From Bacteroidota bacterium (GTDB taxonomy: Bacteria; Bacteroidota; Bacteroidia; Flavobacteriales_E; Vicingaceae): DNA of 64,000 bases. Shown here one piece after another: positions 31,055-54,622 of this stretch. The notes under the pieces are model-generated. The model was not told where the DNA came from and made no database searches. It saw nothing but the letters and a program-made list of their open reading frames with translations. Each line of letters starts with the position of its first letter. The stretch's first letter is position 1. The DNA lies in contig JACPDX010000022.1 in the NCBI GenBank assembly GCA_016183805.1, positions 1 to 64,000 of the forward strand. Reading direction: 5' to 3'. A program made the translations under genes and the position numbers.

Positions 31055-31636
31055 ATGATTGCACAAATAAAAGGTAAACTAATTGAAAAAACACCAACTT
31101 ACGTTGTTATTGATTGCAACGGGGTGGGTTATCAGTTAAATATTTCGTTAAACACATTTTCAAAAATCGGAAACGAAGAAAGTTGTTTGCTTTATACTCA
31201 TTTTGTTGTTCGTGAGGATGCACATTTACTTTATGGATTTAAAGAAAAAAGTGAACGGGAGTTATTTCGACAATTAATAACAGTATCAGGAGTAGGGTCA
31301 AGTACAGCTATGATGATTTTATCTTCTTTATCGCCCGAAGAAACTAAAATAGCCATTATTTCCGGAAATGTAAATGTGTTGAAAAGTGTAAAAGGCATTG
31401 GTTTGAAAACTGCAGAACGAATTATTATTGATTTACGTGATAAGGTTGGTAAGTCGGATGGTACAGAAATTATTTCTTCATTTTCAAACAATACAATTAA
31501 AGAAGAAGCGTTAAGTGCACTTGTTATGCTGGGATTTTCTAAATTGCCAGCCGATAAAGCATTGAATAAAATTATGACTGAAAATTCAAATTTAACAGTT
31601 GAAGAACTGATAAAAAGAACATTAAAAAGCCTTTAA
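31055..31636 (+). CDS. ruvA: Holliday junction branch migration protein RuvA
   Basis: The 193-residue protein has an N-terminal OB fold (MIAQIKGKLIEKTPTYVVID) and two helix-hairpin-helix motifs (LITVSGVGSSTAMMIL and LKSVKGIGLKTAERIIIDL). The C-terminal three-helix domain III contacts RuvB (EALSALVMLGFSKLPADKAL). It binds four-way junctions as a tetramer. It is followed 16 bases later by sprA. Confidence 0.96.
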   Translation: MIAQIKGKLIEKTPTYVVIDCNGVGYQLNISLNTFSKIGNEESCLLYTHFVVREDAHLLYGFKEKSERELFRQLITVSGVGSSTAMMILSSLSPEETKIAIISGNVNVLKSVKGIGLKTAERIIIDLRDKVGKSDGTEIISSFSNNTIKEEALSALVMLGFSKLPADKALNKIMTENSNLTVEELIKRTLKSL

Positions 31637-31652: not shown

Positions 31653-32156
31653 TTGATTAAAGGAAAAAAAACATATCAAAACATCGGCTTCGTTTTAGGA
31701 CTATCAGTATTGATAACCCTTGTTAACTACACCATAAATCCTGTTGCTTCAAAAGCACTTCCACACAATAATATTTTAGCTTTTGAACTCGAAAATCCTA
31801 TAGATAGTCCTGAAATAGATTTACCCTTTCCATTTAAAGATGGTATTGGAAATCCGGATGAAAAAAATTCCGGAGGCTTGTATTTGGATAACCCGTCAAA
31901 TGTGGAAAAGGGTTTTGAATACGACCCCGATACCGAAAATTACAACTATTATGAAAAAGTTGGTGGTAAAAGCATTAAATATCCAACCTACATGGATTTT
32001 GAAGAATATATCAATTATGATTCAAAAAAATCATTACAAAAATACTGGAAAGAAAAAGCTGCTGCCGATGATATTAATCAAACCAAAGGATTTAGACCAA
32101 CATTAACCATTAAAAGTAAAACTTTCGACAGATTGTTTGGCGGAAATACAAGTTAA
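31653..32156 (+). CDS. sprA: SprA N-terminal fragment (type IX secretion translocon, interrupted)
   Basis: The frame starts at TTG 31653 and encodes a membrane/signal segment followed by the SprA N-terminal signature: LPFPFKDGIGNP, GGLYLDNPSNVEKGFEYDP, PTYMDFEEYINYDS, then FDRLFGGNTS. It stops at 32154-32156. In intact SprA proteins FGGNT is followed by about 50 residues before the KLKL..NYNT motif, which here appears immediately in a different frame. So this is the 5' end of one gene split by an out-of-frame deletion at about 32150. Confidence 0.85.
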   Translation: MIKGKKTYQNIGFVLGLSVLITLVNYTINPVASKALPHNNILAFELENPIDSPEIDLPFPFKDGIGNPDEKNSGGLYLDNPSNVEKGFEYDPDTENYNYYEKVGGKSIKYPTYMDFEEYINYDSKKSLQKYWKEKAAADDINQTKGFRPTLTIKSKTFDRLFGGNTS

Positions 32157-32206
32157 AACTTTCCTTAAATTATAATACAGAAGCTACGTTTGATTTCGAA
32201 AACCAA

Positions 32207-35200
32207 ATGAAAATTGAATATACGGGCTATGAAGATGAAATCATTCAAAAAATTGAAGCGGGGAATGTTTCTTTACCACTAAAAGGATCTCTAATTACGG
32301 GGAGTCAAACATTGTTTGGAGTTAAAACCGAATTAAAATTTGGTCGTTTATATGTAACGAGTGTTTTATCGCAAGAACGTGGTGAAAAGAAAGAAATCAA
32401 TGTGCAAGGAGGAGCACAAATTCAAGTTTATGAAAAACCTGCATCAGATTATGAGGATAACAAACACTACTTTTTGTCGCACTATTTTAGAGATAATTAT
32501 GAGACTTTTTTGTCATCACCACCTGTCATCAATTCTAGAGCAAATATTATTAAAGTCGAAGTTTGGACTTCTAACATTAACAATGCAATAGAAAATACCA
32601 AAAATATTATCGGTTTTATGGATTTGGGTGAAGCAACTTCCAATAATATTTATAACGATGCTTTAGTAACAGATCTTAATCCTGCGTTTAATGCAACATT
32701 CCCATTAAATGGTGCAAATAATTTATATGAAAACATTGATAGTCTTTATCCCGCTTCACAAGCAATCAGAAGTTTTGTTACTTCAAGCCAAAGTTTGGAA
32801 GCTATTGGTTTTGAAAACGGTGTTGATTTTGAGAAATACGAAAATGCCCGATTGTTAAATCCATCGGAATATACCTTAAACCCACAACTGGGTTATATCT
32901 CTTTAAATTCTACTCTTCAACCCGATCAAGTTTTGTGTGTCGCTTTCCAATATACGTTAGATGGTCAAGTTTATCAGGTTGGTGAATTTTCAACAGATGG
33001 TATTGCCGGTCAAGATGCACTTTATGTGAAATTATTAAAGGCTTCGATATTAAATACAGATTTACCCACATGGGATTTAATGATGAAAAATGTTTACGCA
33101 TTGGGAGCATACAACATTTCTCCAACTGATTTCTTTTTTAATATTGATTATTTAGACCCTGCAACCGGAGTTCAAATTCCTTTTATTCCTGAAGACAACC
33201 TTAGTAATCAACCCATTATTGGTTTAATGAATTTAGATAGAGTGAACAATCAAAATCAAGCCAGCCCCGACGGAGTTTTCGATTTTATTAATGGAGTTAC
33301 CATAAATGCCAATAACGGAAGGGTTTATTTTCCTGTCTTAGAACCTTTTGGTTCTCACTTGAGAACAAAATTTACAAACCCTGCAACAGCAAATAAATAT
33401 GCTTTCGATTCTTTATATACCACCACTCAAACTTTGGCAAAACAAGATGTTACCAAAAATAGATTTACCTTAAAAGGAAAATACTCATCATCATCGAGTG
33501 CGGATATTTCCTTAAATGCATTGAACGTGCCACAAGGCTCGGTTAAAGTAACTGCTGGTGGAGCTGCTTTGACCGAAAATGTTGATTATACGGTTGATTA
33601 CAACTTGGGTAGGGTTAAAATTATAAATGATGGTATTTTGCAATCAGGAACACCAATTAAAATATCATTAGAAAGTCAGTCATTGTTTAACATCCAAACA
33701 AAAACAATGATGGGAACCAGGCTGGATTATAAAATCAGCGATAAGTTTAATATTGGTGGTACAATAATCAATTTGTCGGAGCGACCTTTAACTCCAAAAA
33801 TTAACCTTGGCGATGAACCCATTAATAACACCATTTACGGCTTTGATATTACCTATTCTACCGATGCCCCTTTTTTAACTCGATGGGCCGATAAGTTGCC
33901 GCTGTATAGCACTAAAGAAAAATCTACGTTAACTGTTGAAGGTGAATTTGCACATCTTCTACCGGGGAACCCATCAGCAATTAGTAAAGCAGGAACAGCA
34001 TATTTAGACGATTTTGAAGGCAGCCAATCCACTATCGATTTATCCACTTTTACTATGTGGAATTTGGCCAGTACACCACAGGGGCAACCCGATTTATTTC
34101 CTGAAGGCGATGGACCGACTTCAAACACTTTAGCTTATGGTTTCAACAGGGCAAAGTTGGCTTGGTATGTTATTGATCCACTGTTTTGGAGAAACGACAC
34201 TAGAACTCCTGGTCATATCTCCTCCAATCCTAATATGCAATCTAACCACTACATGCGTGAAGTGTTGCAAACCGAAGTTTTTCCTAACAAAAGCTTAACC
34301 AATGGGGTAGTTACTAATATGCCAATTTTAGATTTGGCCTATTACCCAACAGAAAGAGGCCCTTATAATTTTGATGATGGAACCTCTCTTGGTGCAGGTA
34401 TTGCACCAGACGGCACCCTAATTAATCCTACATCTCGTTGGGGGGGTATCATGAGAAGAATTGAAACGACCGATTTTGAGTCTTCCAATGTCGAATTTAT
34501 TCAGTTTTGGGTAATGGATCCCTTTAATGATGAAGATGGAAATCCTTTGCATGGTGGAGGTCAATTGTATTTTAATTTAGGTAATATTTCAGAAGATATT
34601 TTAAAAGATTCTCGTAAAAGTTTTGAAAATGGATTACCAATTTCTGCAATTGATTATGGCACAGGAACAAATATAAATTTAGTAGATACCACCATTTGGG
34701 GTAGGGTACCTAAAGTTCAGGCTCTAGTAAATGCATTTGACAATACACCTTCTACACGACCATTTCAGGATATAGGTTATGATGGATTAAATGATGCTGA
34801 TGAAGCCGCTATTTTTGGAAGTAATTTTGGTGCTGATCCTGCAGCCGATAATTATCATCATTATCGTGGTTCGGATTATGATGGTGCAGCGACAGATATT
34901 TTAACACGATACAAAAAATATAATGGTCCGGAGGGAAACTCACCAACTTCTGAACAATATACTGAAGCATATTCCACATCTGCAACAACACGCCCAAATG
35001 TAGAAGACATCAATTTAAATAACAACCTTGATTTTAAGGAGAGTTATTTTCAATATGTTGTAAACTTAAGCCCTTCACAAGTTAATCCAAGTAATGTTGG
35101 TAATAATTACATTACCAGTGTTTTAGAAACTTCAGTAAGAACACCAAATGGTAATACTAGAAATATACGTTGGTATCAGTTTAAAATTCCTATTCGCGAA

Positions 35201-38200
35201 CCCGAAAAAGTGGTGGGTAATATTCAAGATTTTAAATCGATACGATTTATGAGAATGTTTATGAAAGGATTTAGCGAGAAAGTAATCTTGCGTTTTGCCC
35301 AGTTAGAATTGGTTAGAGGTGAATGGAGAAAATACGATGGTAGTTTATTAAGTTTAGGAGATTATATTGGTACGGATGATAATTCTACATCGTTTATCAT
35401 TTCGGCTGTTAATATTGAAGAAAATAGTAGCAAAACACCTGTAAATTATGTTATTCCTCCCGGAATCTTACGTGAAATTAATCCTAACCCGACAAGTAAT
35501 AATACAGGATTAAATCAATTAAACGAGCAAGCATTATCGTTAAATGTTTGTAATTTAAAAGATGGTGACGCCAGGGCCGGATTTAAAATAATGGATATTG
35601 ATATTCGTAGATACAAAAAACTAAAAATGTTTATTCATGCCGAACAAAGTAATACCAATAGTCCTTTAAAAGATAACGATTTAACAGTATTTATTCGAAT
35701 GGGGACAGATTTCAATAACAACTATTATGAATATGAAGTACCTTTAAAAGTTACTGCACCCGGTTTTTATAATAAAGATATTGAAAGTGATCAATACCTC
35801 GTTTGGCCGGAATCAAATAACATAGATTTGGTTTTTTCAAAACTTACAGATTTGAAGCTTAAAAGAAATCAACTAATGTCTGACCCACAATCAGGAATAA
35901 ACATTTTAAAAGCTTATGAAGAAGATGACGGTACAAATAAAATTAAAGTGAAAGGAAATCCGAATTTGGCAGAAGTAAGAGTGTTTATGATTGGTGTGAG
36001 AAACAGAAAACAATCAGCACTCCGTCCGGATGACGATGGCTTAGATAAATGTGCCGAAATTTGGGTAAACGAACTTCGTATGTCAGACTTTGATAACGAA
36101 GGCGGTTGGGCTGCTCAAGCTCGAATGACTGCTCAAATTGCAGATTTAGGTAATTTTACATTAGCTGGAAATTATTCTACACCTGGTTTTGGAAGTGTTC
36201 AACAAAAATTAAATGAACGTCAAATTGTCACCAAAAAAAGTTATGATCTTTCGACAGGAGTGGAGTTAGGAAAGTTTATACCTGAAAAAATAGGAATTAG
36301 TTTGCCCATGTATTTTAGCCAGTCAGAAGGTAAGGTTACTCCAAAATACAACCCTCTTGACCCTGATATTTTGTTGAACGAATTGTTGGATAACGATGAT
36401 TTTTCGCAAGAATACAGAGATTCTGTAGGATTTAGAACAGAAGAGTACCTGAAACGTAAAAGCATAAACTTTACTAATGTGCGAAAATTGAGACCAAAAG
36501 GTCAAACAAAAGCTCATTTTTATGATATTTCTAATTTATCGTTCAATTTTGGATATTCAAAATCGTACATGAGAAATGCCGATACCCAATTTGACACCAA
36601 AAAGAATTATAAAGGAGGGTTTGCCTATGGTTTTAGTAATAACCCAAAAAACTATACCCCTTTTAGTAGTACTAAAATTGCCAAAAAGAAAGCATTTGCT
36701 TTTATAAAGGATTTCAACTTCTATTTAGCACCGAAACAACTTACTTTTCAAACCGATTTAGATAGAATGTATTCGGAAAGAAGGGCAAGAAACAATACAG
36801 GTTTCGATTTTGAAATGCCTACTTATTATCAAAAATATTTTTATTGGAACAGAATTTATGCCCTCAAATTTGATTTAACTAAAGCCCTTACATTTAATTT
36901 TAATGCCAACAATAAAGCATCCATTAATGAACCTTTAACGGCTCAAGGTCGTGTAAATCAAGATTACAAAGAAGAATATCAGCAATGGAAAGATACCGTT
37001 TATGAAAGTTTTAGAGAATTTGGAATAAATACCAATTATCATCATTCATTTAATTTTAATTATGAGGTACCCATTACCAAAATACCATATTTAGACTTTA
37101 TTACACTAACATCTACTTACGCAGGAGATTACGATTGGCAACGAGCCCCAATTGGCGCAGATACTTTAGGTCATACTATTCAAAACTCGAATACCATAAC
37201 TTTTAATGCCCAATTAAATATGGGTAAATTTTATAGTCAGTTTAAATATTTAAAAGATGTGGAAAAACGCTCAACCGAACGTCAGCAAAGAAGAACGTTA
37301 GATAGAAAAAAACCGGATAGAACAAAAACTCAGGCGGAAAATGCCAAGTTGAAAGGTTGGGCAGCAGGAACACCTCCGGCAACGATTCAATTTGATCAGA
37401 AAAAATTTAAAGATTCAGACACATCGAGAGTAGAACTTTGGAGAAAAGTATTGCCATTTAAACCTATGGATCATGTGGTGTTATTGTTGATGAGCCCAAA
37501 AAATATTTCGGGAACCTATACCCGAAACAGAGGTACATTGTTGCCCGGATATTATCAGGAAACAGCTATTTTAGGATTTAACCCAAATTTCTCAGCACCG
37601 GGTTTTAATTTTGTTTCAGGTATTCAGGAAGAAAATTTTGCGGTAAGAGCCTACGAAAATGATTGGTTAGTACCAAATGCTTCTTTGTTATATACTTACA
37701 ATACAACCTACAAAGAAGAATACAATTTACGGGCAACCGTTAACCCGCTTAAAAATTTACGTATTCAATTAACCATGAACCGCAATTATGCTACCAACAT
37801 GGCTCAGCAATTTTTTTGGAACGACACATTAGACGGAGGAAAGTATGAATTTCCTAGGGCAATTGAAACAGGTAATTTTAGCATGTCGTACCTATCCATT
37901 TTTACTGCTTTTAGTGGAGATGAAGAGGGTAGCTGGAATTCATCGGTTTTTGATAATTTTTTGAAAAACAGAGAAATTATTTCACAACGAAAAGGTGCTG
38001 ATAATCCTCATTCTAATGGGCTTATAGGTAATTATAGCGATGGTTACAGTGGAACTGCCCAAGATGTATTAATACCGACATTTTTATCGGCGTATGGTGG
38101 TACAGATCCCAATAGCATTTCATTACAAAGTTTCGATAAATACATTCCCATTCCAAATTGGAGAATTACTTATGATGGTTTAGAAAAAATTCCAATTCTT

Positions 38201-38818
38201 AACCGAGCATTTAAAAAAATTAGTTTAAACCACTCCTATCGTTCTACATTTAATGTAAGTTCATTTACTACCAACTTATTTTATATTCCGGATGGAGCAG
38301 AACGAAATGTCGAAAACAATTTTATATCGGCATATCAAATTTCTTCGGTATCTATTTCCGAACAATTTGGACCACTTTTAGGTATTGATGTAACATTAGA
38401 AAACAATATATTGATAAAATTTGAATATAAAAAAGACAGGAATGCTTCGTTAAGTATGGCTAACAATCAAATTACAGAAGTAAAAGGTAATGAGTATAGC
38501 ATTGGCTCCGGTTATACTTTTAGGCAGGTTCGTGTCCCGTTTATTAAGCGTAGAATTCAAAGTGATATTGATACAAGGATAGATTTTTCGTTAAGGAATA
38601 ATAATACGATTATCAGAAAAATTGTAGAAGGAGTAAATCAATTGACTAGTGGTCAAAGTATCTTTTCTGTAAAATTTACTGCTGATTATAAAATCAGCCA
38701 AAAACTTAATTTTAGGTTATTTTATGATTACATAGCAACAAATCCTTTGATTTCTACAACATTCCCAACCACTAACACAAATGCAGGATTTAGTTTAAGA
38801 TTTGTTTTATCTCAATAA
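32207..38818 (+). CDS. sprA: SprA/Sov main body (type IX secretion outer-membrane translocon)
   Basis: SprA is the giant 36-strand-class outer-membrane barrel through which type IX cargo passes. This frame is open from about 32141, where it reads KLKLSLNYNTEATFDF in continuity with the family. The first ATG is at 32207, with KIEYTGYEDEIIQKIEAGN, then GSLITGSQTLFGVKTEL. Later SprA motifs include DDFEGSQSTIDLSTF, YPTERGPYNFD and EIWVNELRMSDFD, and it ends in SLRFVLSQ. It continues the fragment at 31653-32156. Together they span about 2370 codons, near the family size minus about 50 residues. gcvH follows. Confidence 0.92.
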   Translation: MKIEYTGYEDEIIQKIEAGNVSLPLKGSLITGSQTLFGVKTELKFGRLYVTSVLSQERGEKKEINVQGGAQIQVYEKPASDYEDNKHYFLSHYFRDNYETFLSSPPVINSRANIIKVEVWTSNINNAIENTKNIIGFMDLGEATSNNIYNDALVTDLNPAFNATFPLNGANNLYENIDSLYPASQAIRSFVTSSQSLEAIGFENGVDFEKYENARLLNPSEYTLNPQLGYISLNSTLQPDQVLCVAFQYTLDGQVYQVGEFSTDGIAGQDALYVKLLKASILNTDLPTWDLMMKNVYALGAYNISPTDFFFNIDYLDPATGVQIPFIPEDNLSNQPIIGLMNLDRVNNQNQASPDGVFDFINGVTINANNGRVYFPVLEPFGSHLRTKFTNPATANKYAFDSLYTTTQTLAKQDVTKNRFTLKGKYSSSSSADISLNALNVPQGSVKVTAGGAALTENVDYTVDYNLGRVKIINDGILQSGTPIKISLESQSLFNIQTKTMMGTRLDYKISDKFNIGGTIINLSERPLTPKINLGDEPINNTIYGFDITYSTDAPFLTRWADKLPLYSTKEKSTLTVEGEFAHLLPGNPSAISKAGTAYLDDFEGSQSTIDLSTFTMWNLASTPQGQPDLFPEGDGPTSNTLAYGFNRAKLAWYVIDPLFWRNDTRTPGHISSNPNMQSNHYMREVLQTEVFPNKSLTNGVVTNMPILDLAYYPTERGPYNFDDGTSLGAGIAPDGTLINPTSRWGGIMRRIETTDFESSNVEFIQFWVMDPFNDEDGNPLHGGGQLYFNLGNISEDILKDSRKSFENGLPISAIDYGTGTNINLVDTTIWGRVPKVQALVNAFDNTPSTRPFQDIGYDGLNDADEAAIFGSNFGADPAADNYHHYRGSDYDGAATDILTRYKKYNGPEGNSPTSEQYTEAYSTSATTRPNVEDINLNNNLDFKESYFQYVVNLSPSQVNPSNVGNNYITSVLETSVRTPNGNTRNIRWYQFKIPIREPEKVVGNIQDFKSIRFMRMFMKGFSEKVILRFAQLELVRGEWRKYDGSLLSLGDYIGTDDNSTSFIISAVNIEENSSKTPVNYVIPPGILREINPNPTSNNTGLNQLNEQALSLNVCNLKDGDARAGFKIMDIDIRRYKKLKMFIHAEQSNTNSPLKDNDLTVFIRMGTDFNNNYYEYEVPLKVTAPGFYNKDIESDQYLVWPESNNIDLVFSKLTDLKLKRNQLMSDPQSGINILKAYEEDDGTNKIKVKGNPNLAEVRVFMIGVRNRKQSALRPDDDGLDKCAEIWVNELRMSDFDNEGGWAAQARMTAQIADLGNFTLAGNYSTPGFGSVQQKLNERQIVTKKSYDLSTGVELGKFIPEKIGISLPMYFSQSEGKVTPKYNPLDPDILLNELLDNDDFSQEYRDSVGFRTEEYLKRKSINFTNVRKLRPKGQTKAHFYDISNLSFNFGYSKSYMRNADTQFDTKKNYKGGFAYGFSNNPKNYTPFSSTKIAKKKAFAFIKDFNFYLAPKQLTFQTDLDRMYSERRARNNTGFDFEMPTYYQKYFYWNRIYALKFDLTKALTFNFNANNKASINEPLTAQGRVNQDYKEEYQQWKDTVYESFREFGINTNYHHSFNFNYEVPITKIPYLDFITLTSTYAGDYDWQRAPIGADTLGHTIQNSNTITFNAQLNMGKFYSQFKYLKDVEKRSTERQQRRTLDRKKPDRTKTQAENAKLKGWAAGTPPATIQFDQKKFKDSDTSRVELWRKVLPFKPMDHVVLLLMSPKNISGTYTRNRGTLLPGYYQETAILGFNPNFSAPGFNFVSGIQEENFAVRAYENDWLVPNASLLYTYNTTYKEEYNLRATVNPLKNLRIQLTMNRNYATNMAQQFFWNDTLDGGKYEFPRAIETGNFSMSYLSIFTAFSGDEEGSWNSSVFDNFLKNREIISQRKGADNPHSNGLIGNYSDGYSGTAQDVLIPTFLSAYGGTDPNSISLQSFDKYIPIPNWRITYDGLEKIPILNRAFKKISLNHSYRSTFNVSSFTTNLFYIPDGAERNVENNFISAYQISSVSISEQFGPLLGIDVTLENNILIKFEYKKDRNASLSMANNQITEVKGNEYSIGSGYTFRQVRVPFIKRRIQSDIDTRIDFSLRNNNTIIRKIVEGVNQLTSGQSIFSVKFTADYKISQKLNFRLFYDYIATNPLISTTFPTTNTNAGFSLRFVLSQ

Positions 38819-38914: not shown

Positions 38915-39292
38915 ATGAATATTCCATCAGAATTAAAGTACACAAAAGACCACGAATGGGTTAAAATTGAAGGCGATGTTGCAATAGTAGGAATTACAGA
39001 TTTTGCTCAAGGCGAATTAGGTGATATTGTTTATGTAGAAGTAGAAACAGAAGGCGACTCTTTAGCAAAAGAAGCCACTTTTGGAACTGTGGAGGCTGTA
39101 AAAACAGTTTCTGATTTATTTATGCCGATATCAGGTGAAGTTATTGAATTTAATAAGGGTTTAGAAAAAAATCCTGAAGTGGTAAATACCGATCCTTATG
39201 GTAAAGGTTGGATGATTAAAGTAAAAGCTTCCAACGCTTCAGAAGTTAATGGATTGTTGTCGGCAGACCAATACAAAGCTTTGATAGGATAA
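38915..39292 (+). CDS. gcvH: Glycine cleavage system H protein
   Basis: The 125-residue lipoyl carrier has KYTKDHEWV at the N-terminus and the lipoylated Lys in [12 protein letters not shown] (Lys63). [18 protein letters not shown] follows. It shuttles the aminomethyl group between the P, T and L proteins. It sits downstream of sprA, as in Flavobacterium. No glycine riboswitch is evident upstream. Confidence 0.96.
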
Positions 39293-53971: not shown

Positions 53972-54073
53972 GGCATTATATTTTAAAACCCTTGAGAATT
54001 GAAGGTGTAAGTAATATCTACACCTTCGCTGTTTTCAAAAACTCCTGAAATATTATTAAATTTTTTTTGGATA

Positions 54074-54622
54074 TCAACAGTTCGTTTGTAAACCAAACCA
54101 ATATTGGCGGCATATTTTTCTTACCGAATCTAACACCGTTGAACCTATTGTTTCTGGTTGATGAGTTGAAGTGTATTCATATTCCCATGAAGATAAAGTA
54201 TTCATGGAATTACCATTCCACTTTTTACCGGTTTTTATTGGAAAAATTAATTTGACAAACCGAACATTGTCTTCTACTTTTTGAAAATTGGAATTGGTCA
54301 TAGTTGCATTCCAAACTACTTGATGAACCCAATCTGGTGAAATGGCAGTATCTTTTTTATAGCGAATAATTTTATATGCTTCTTTACCTTGTGCATCAAT
54401 GTATTTTGAATCAATTACCTCTTTGATTTGAAACTTGTAATTATCTACAATTCCAAAAGGAACATTATAAAAAATAGAATCAACATCGTAAATTACATAT
54501 TTACCAACGGTTAATCCTGCATAATTGTATCCATAATTGATAGGAACAGTTTTTTCATCTTTTTTGCAAGAGAAAAAGAGTATTGAAAAAATAAAAAAGA
54601 AGATAACAAAACTATTTTTCAT
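54074..54622 (-). CDS. Lipoprotein, frameshifted near its C-terminus
   Basis: A lipoprotein signal (FFIFSILFFSC, Cys at about 19) precedes about 160 residues (YAGLTVGKYVIYDVDSI, PIKTGKKWNGNSMN). In the current frame it ends after VRKICRQYWFG at 54074. In another frame the sequence continues KYAANIGLVYKRTVDIQ ... FNSQGF to a TAA at 53983-53985, the expected kind of family end. Removing one A from the five-A run near 54113 joins the two and gives about 212 residues. A TAACTTTA box lies four bases before the ATG. The domain is not named, but such lipoproteins recur in Flavobacteria. Confidence 0.7.
   Translation of the reverse strand: MKNSFVIFFFIFSILFFSCKKDEKTVPINYGYNYAGLTVGKYVIYDVDSIFYNVPFGIVDNYKFQIKEVIDSKYIDAQGKEAYKIIRYKKDTAISPDWVHQVVWNATMTNSNFQKVEDNVRFVKLIFPIKTGKKWNGNSMNTLSSWEYEYTSTHQPETIGSTVLDSVRKICRQYWFGLQTNC

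What the first reader, a model, noticed from the sequence alone, without database searches (positions are those of the whole stretch)
31653..38818. sprA split by an out-of-frame deletion of about 50 codons
Frame one ends FGGNTS and frame two begins KLKLSLNYNT immediately after. In intact SprA these are separated by about 50 residues (an IRPQG region and a KIG/QIGD-like region). Loss of both length and frame rules out simple frameshifting. SprA is the translocon of type IX secretion, and this window alone encodes at least five sorting-domain proteins, so a true null would be striking. An assembly error is the obvious alternative.
Basis: partly seen in the sequence, partly recalled or inferred. 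Interest (0 to 1): 0.7.

Follow-up and report, generated by a model that had tools for sequence, protein, structure and literature searches.

The report
Assembly deletion falsely splitting sprA
The secretion gene sprA looks broken because 154 bases are missing from this genome assembly, but the same assembly also "breaks" genes no bacterium can live without (rpoC and secA) in the same way, so the break is almost certainly an assembly error and not biology.

Summary
sprA (31653-38818) lacks 154 nt (51 codons + 1 nt) at 32149/32150 relative to seven intact relatives. The lost piece is TIDIRPQGSAELSFGINRSTRDNPALP...NVVGNIGE. The genome holds no second sprA and no stray copy of the piece. Biological loss is unlikely. 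Compared with a same-genus genome, this assembly carries at least five frame-breaking internal deletions in about 66 kb of coding sequence: sprA 154 nt, secA 82 nt, rpoC 35 nt (within NRAPTLHRLGIQA), a gene next to secA 149 nt, and a lipoprotein in this same window 59 nt. rpoC and secA are single-copy and indispensable, so those gaps cannot be real. Two other same-genus genomes show none in about 55 kb. At the measured rate (1 per ~15 kb) a 7.35-kb gene has about a 39% chance of a hit. The rest of sprA shows purifying selection (128 synonymous: 12 nonsynonymous lineage-specific changes, against 119:11 in the intact sister). The genome keeps at least 150 type IX sorting domains and an intact GldM. 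Verdict: assembly artefact in an ordinary, very probably intact sprA. A real, very recent null cannot be strictly excluded without reads.

The parts
31653..32156 (+). sprA frame one: TTG start, signal-peptide region and N-terminal ~166 codons, then out-of-frame end and stop TAA
   Evidence: TTG start column shared by five aligned relatives
32149..32150 (+). junction where 154 nt present in intact relatives are missing
32150..38818 (+). sprA frame two: the remaining ~2222 codons to the natural stop, 86% identical to G001 SprA, no other defect
53986..54622 (-). second gene in the window broken in the same way: lipoprotein with a 59-nt out-of-frame deletion near 54107-54120

Best explanation
An assembly artefact. 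The organism most likely carries an ordinary intact single-copy sprA (about 2,450 codons). The assembled sequence of this draft genome has lost 154 nt inside it, as it has lost tens to about 150 nt inside several other genes, including indispensable ones. The deletions leave no N run and next to no repeat at the joint, so contig ends or reads were probably joined across weakly supported positions; that detail is inferred. SprA itself would work as usual, as the outer-membrane translocon of type IX secretion.
For: Shown: single-copy rpoC on C86 is split by a 35-nt out-of-frame deletion within NRAPTLHRLGIQA. secA on C16 is split by an 82-nt deletion, its neighbour by 149 nt, and a lipoprotein in this window by 59 nt. 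In total 5 of 57 genes / 66.5 kb compared with G001 are broken; controls G003 and G002 have 0 of 43 gene comparisons / 55.5 kb. The rate excluding sprA, 1 per 14.8 kb, gives P = 0.39 of a hit in a gene of sprA's size. Lineage-specific single-base codon changes in sprA frame two are 128 synonymous: 12 nonsynonymous in this genome and 119:11 in intact G001. Amino-acid changes private to this genome versus G001 are in a similar proportion in sprA and its neighbours (48:23 vs 18:15, Fisher p = 0.27). At least 150 type IX sorting domains and an intact gldM are kept. Similar sprA breaks occur in two other family MAGs, on records whose titles give coverage about 1 (L019 cov 1.196, L041 cov 1.043).
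Against: Raw reads were not available, so the junction itself was not tested. Purifying selection on the remainder is also what a very recent real deletion would show. How the assembler made such joints is not established. sprA is dispensable in the laboratory (deletion mutants were made in Cytophaga hutchinsonii, PMC7906972), so unlike rpoC it could be lost.
Confidence: 0.94

Rival explanations
1. A real, very recent 154-nt deletion that makes sprA null in the sequenced strain or in a part of the population, abolishing type IX secretion.
For: The deletion is clean, out of frame, and no second sprA exists. sprA deletion mutants are viable in another member of the phylum (PMC7906972).
Against: The same assembly shows equivalent deletions in rpoC and secA, which cannot be real; the rate predicts such a hit in sprA by chance; no decay in the gene; at least 150 sorting-domain proteins kept.
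Confidence: 0.05
2. The two frames are expressed as one protein by recoding (frameshift, bypass) or as two working parts.
For: Both parts are conserved in sequence.
Against: No recoding can restore 51 missing residues that all intact relatives keep; frame two alone has no signal peptide, so it would stay in the cytoplasm (inference); no typical slippery heptamer was seen at the joint (by eye).
Confidence: 0.01

Closest known systems
[quoted passage not shown] PDB 6h3i/6h3j)
   Same: Same gene, same place between ruvA and gcvH as in relatives checked, 86% identity to G001; matches F. johnsoniae SprA
   Different: Only the 154-nt gap in the assembled sequence; the missing residues align to F. 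johnsoniae SprA just after FGSNT (chain residue 134 on), IDVKPTGSVEMDLG...
Internal-deletion errors in draft and metagenome-assembled genomes
   Same: Out-of-frame internal deletions of 35-154 nt spread over several genes, including essential ones; like breaks in sprA of G018 and G057
   Different: The exact cause (chimeric reads, wrong gap closing) is not identified here

Membership tests
SprA/Sov (TIGR04189) | Match to the equivalog profile above its cut-off (200 bits) | tested here: met
   Frame two 2486 bits, profile 154-2318; frame one 61 bits, profile 4-96
SprA/Sov (TIGR04189) | One continuous reading frame of about 2,400 codons | tested here: not met
   Split by 154 nt in the assembly; met in 35 of 45 family genomes with a match, the rest cut by contig ends or broken inside a contig. 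Because the split is judged an artefact, this does not count against the gene being sprA
SprA/Sov (TIGR04189) | Conserved gene neighbourhood (maeB-ruvA-sprA-gcvH) | tested here: met
   Same neighbours in G001, G002, G003, G015, G006
SprA/Sov (TIGR04189) | Rest of a type IX system and cargo in the genome | tested here: met
   At least 150 TIGR04183 sorting domains, GldM intact; other components not searched
Genuine pseudogene | Relaxed selection or further defects in the remainder | tested here: not met
   S:N 128:12 against 119:11 in intact G001; no other stop or frame break
Assembly artefact | Same defect type in genes that cannot be lost | tested here: met
   rpoC -35 nt, secA -82 nt, both single copy
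Assembly artefact | Reads contradict the assembled joint | not testable with these tools
   No reads held

The most novel reading that the evidence does not exclude
A natural sprA-null bacterium that keeps 150 or more type IX cargo genes, having lost secretion very recently.
Probability: 0.05. Interest if true: 0.4.

Novelty: not a real feature. Interest (0 to 1): 0.06.

Why it matters
As biology it most likely does not matter. As a caution it does: this genome scores 96% complete and 0.4% contaminated, yet about one gene in eleven of those compared carries a false frame break, including rpoC and secA, so gene-loss claims from it should not be trusted.

Tried and rejected
Second sprA copy: none. 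Missing segment elsewhere in the genome as a strain variant or stray contig: none. Long-standing pseudogene: rejected by selection pattern. Frameshift or bypass: rejected because residues are missing. Repeat-mediated deletion: the joints show at most a base or two of shared sequence when compared with relatives, no direct repeat. The first DNA alignment was void because three loci were on the opposite strand; redone. The 'order' search returned the same 46 genomes as the family search and added nothing. A paper search for reports of this error type gave nothing directly usable.

Full report
What is in the sequence. sprA lies on the + strand between ruvA (31055-31636) and gcvH (38915-39292). 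Frame one starts with TTG at 31653 and ends at TAA 32156; frame two is open to 38818. Against intact relatives the only large difference around the joint is a net loss of 154 nt at 32149/32150. G001, the closest genome held, reads FGGN-TIDIRPQGSAELSFGINRSTRDNPALPENQRSTTTFNFDQKIQLNVVGNIGEK-LKL across the place.

Is there another copy? A search of the window's own genome (3.47 Mb, 109 contigs) with frame two and with the SprA profile finds this gene only, and a search with the missing segment finds only the flank at the same place.

Is the gene decaying? In a four-way codon comparison with G001, G003 and G002, single-base codon changes private to this genome are 128 synonymous and 12 nonsynonymous in frame two, and 4 and 0 in frame one. 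Intact G001 has 119 and 11 in frame two. Private amino-acid changes of this genome against G001 do not significantly exceed the proportion in neighbouring genes (48:23 against 18:15, Fisher p = 0.27). There is no second stop or frame break in 2,217 codons. So the deletion is either extremely recent or not real.

Is the assembly to be trusted? The decisive test was to look at genes that cannot be missing. The rpoC profile search showed the gene in 451-codon and 987-codon frames on one contig (C86) in this genome, against single frames of about 1,435-1,447 codons in nearly all relatives where it is not cut by a contig end. The DNA shows a 35-nt deletion within the NRAPTLHRLGIQA stretch. secA on C16 is split by 82 nt, and the gene beside it by 149 nt. 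A lipoprotein in this very window (53986-54622, minus strand) is split by 59 nt. Both rpoC and secA are single copy here and indispensable in bacteria (established knowledge), so these gaps must be errors in the assembled sequence.

How often? With a non-redundant set of 103 G001 genes, 57 have counterparts in the sampled stretches of this genome (66.5 kb of coding sequence) and five are broken; the same genes in sampled stretches of G003 and G002 show none in 43 comparisons (55.5 kb). Leaving sprA out, the rate is one per 14.8 kb, so a gene of 7.35 kb has a 39% chance of carrying such a break. The sprA split needs no further explanation. The sample was chosen by synteny and by essential genes, not at random, so the rate is rough.

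Other genomes. Of 45 genomes of the family with a SprA match, 35 have it in one full frame, six are cut by contig ends, and four are broken inside a contig: this one, G018 (about 56 nt lost), G057 (about 28 nt) and G042 (about 1 nt). The public records that match G018 and G057 in contig length give coverage values near 1 in their titles (L019, L041), which fits poorly supported assembly; the losses for these three were read off tblastn ends and are approximate.

Biology if it were real. SprA is the 36-strand translocon barrel of type IX secretion (PMC10994853), and sprA deletion in Cytophaga hutchinsonii stops secretion of most cargo while cells remain viable (PMC7906972). This genome has at least 150 sorting domains (the search stopped at 150 scored of 203 candidates) and an intact GldM. 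A null would be striking, but nothing here requires it.

Mechanism of the error. The five joints have no N run and at most a base or two of possible shared sequence. Chimeric reads at thin coverage or wrongly closed gaps would both do; which one is inference and cannot be settled without reads.

Noticed in passing
window 53986-54622 (-): A lipoprotein gene has a 59-nt out-of-frame deletion relative to G001, the same kind of defect as in sprA.
   Followed up: yes
L104 (G000:C86), about C86:65082: Single-copy rpoC is split by a 35-nt deletion within the invariant NRAPTLHRLGIQA stretch; an assembly error by necessity.
   Followed up: yes
L118 (G000:C16), 12789 and about 13961: secA is split by an 82-nt deletion and the next gene by a 149-nt deletion.
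   Followed up: yes
window 31653 and L003-L007: sprA appears to start with TTG, and the TTG stands in the same alignment column in five relatives.
   Followed up: partly
L100, L101, L102: sprA is also broken inside a contig in G057 (~28 nt lost), G042 (~1 nt) and G018 (~56 nt), genomes of the same family.
   Followed up: partly
whole genome G000: At least 150 type IX sorting domains (TIGR04183), including five on this window's contig: a large cargo set for a 3.5-Mb genome.
   Followed up: no
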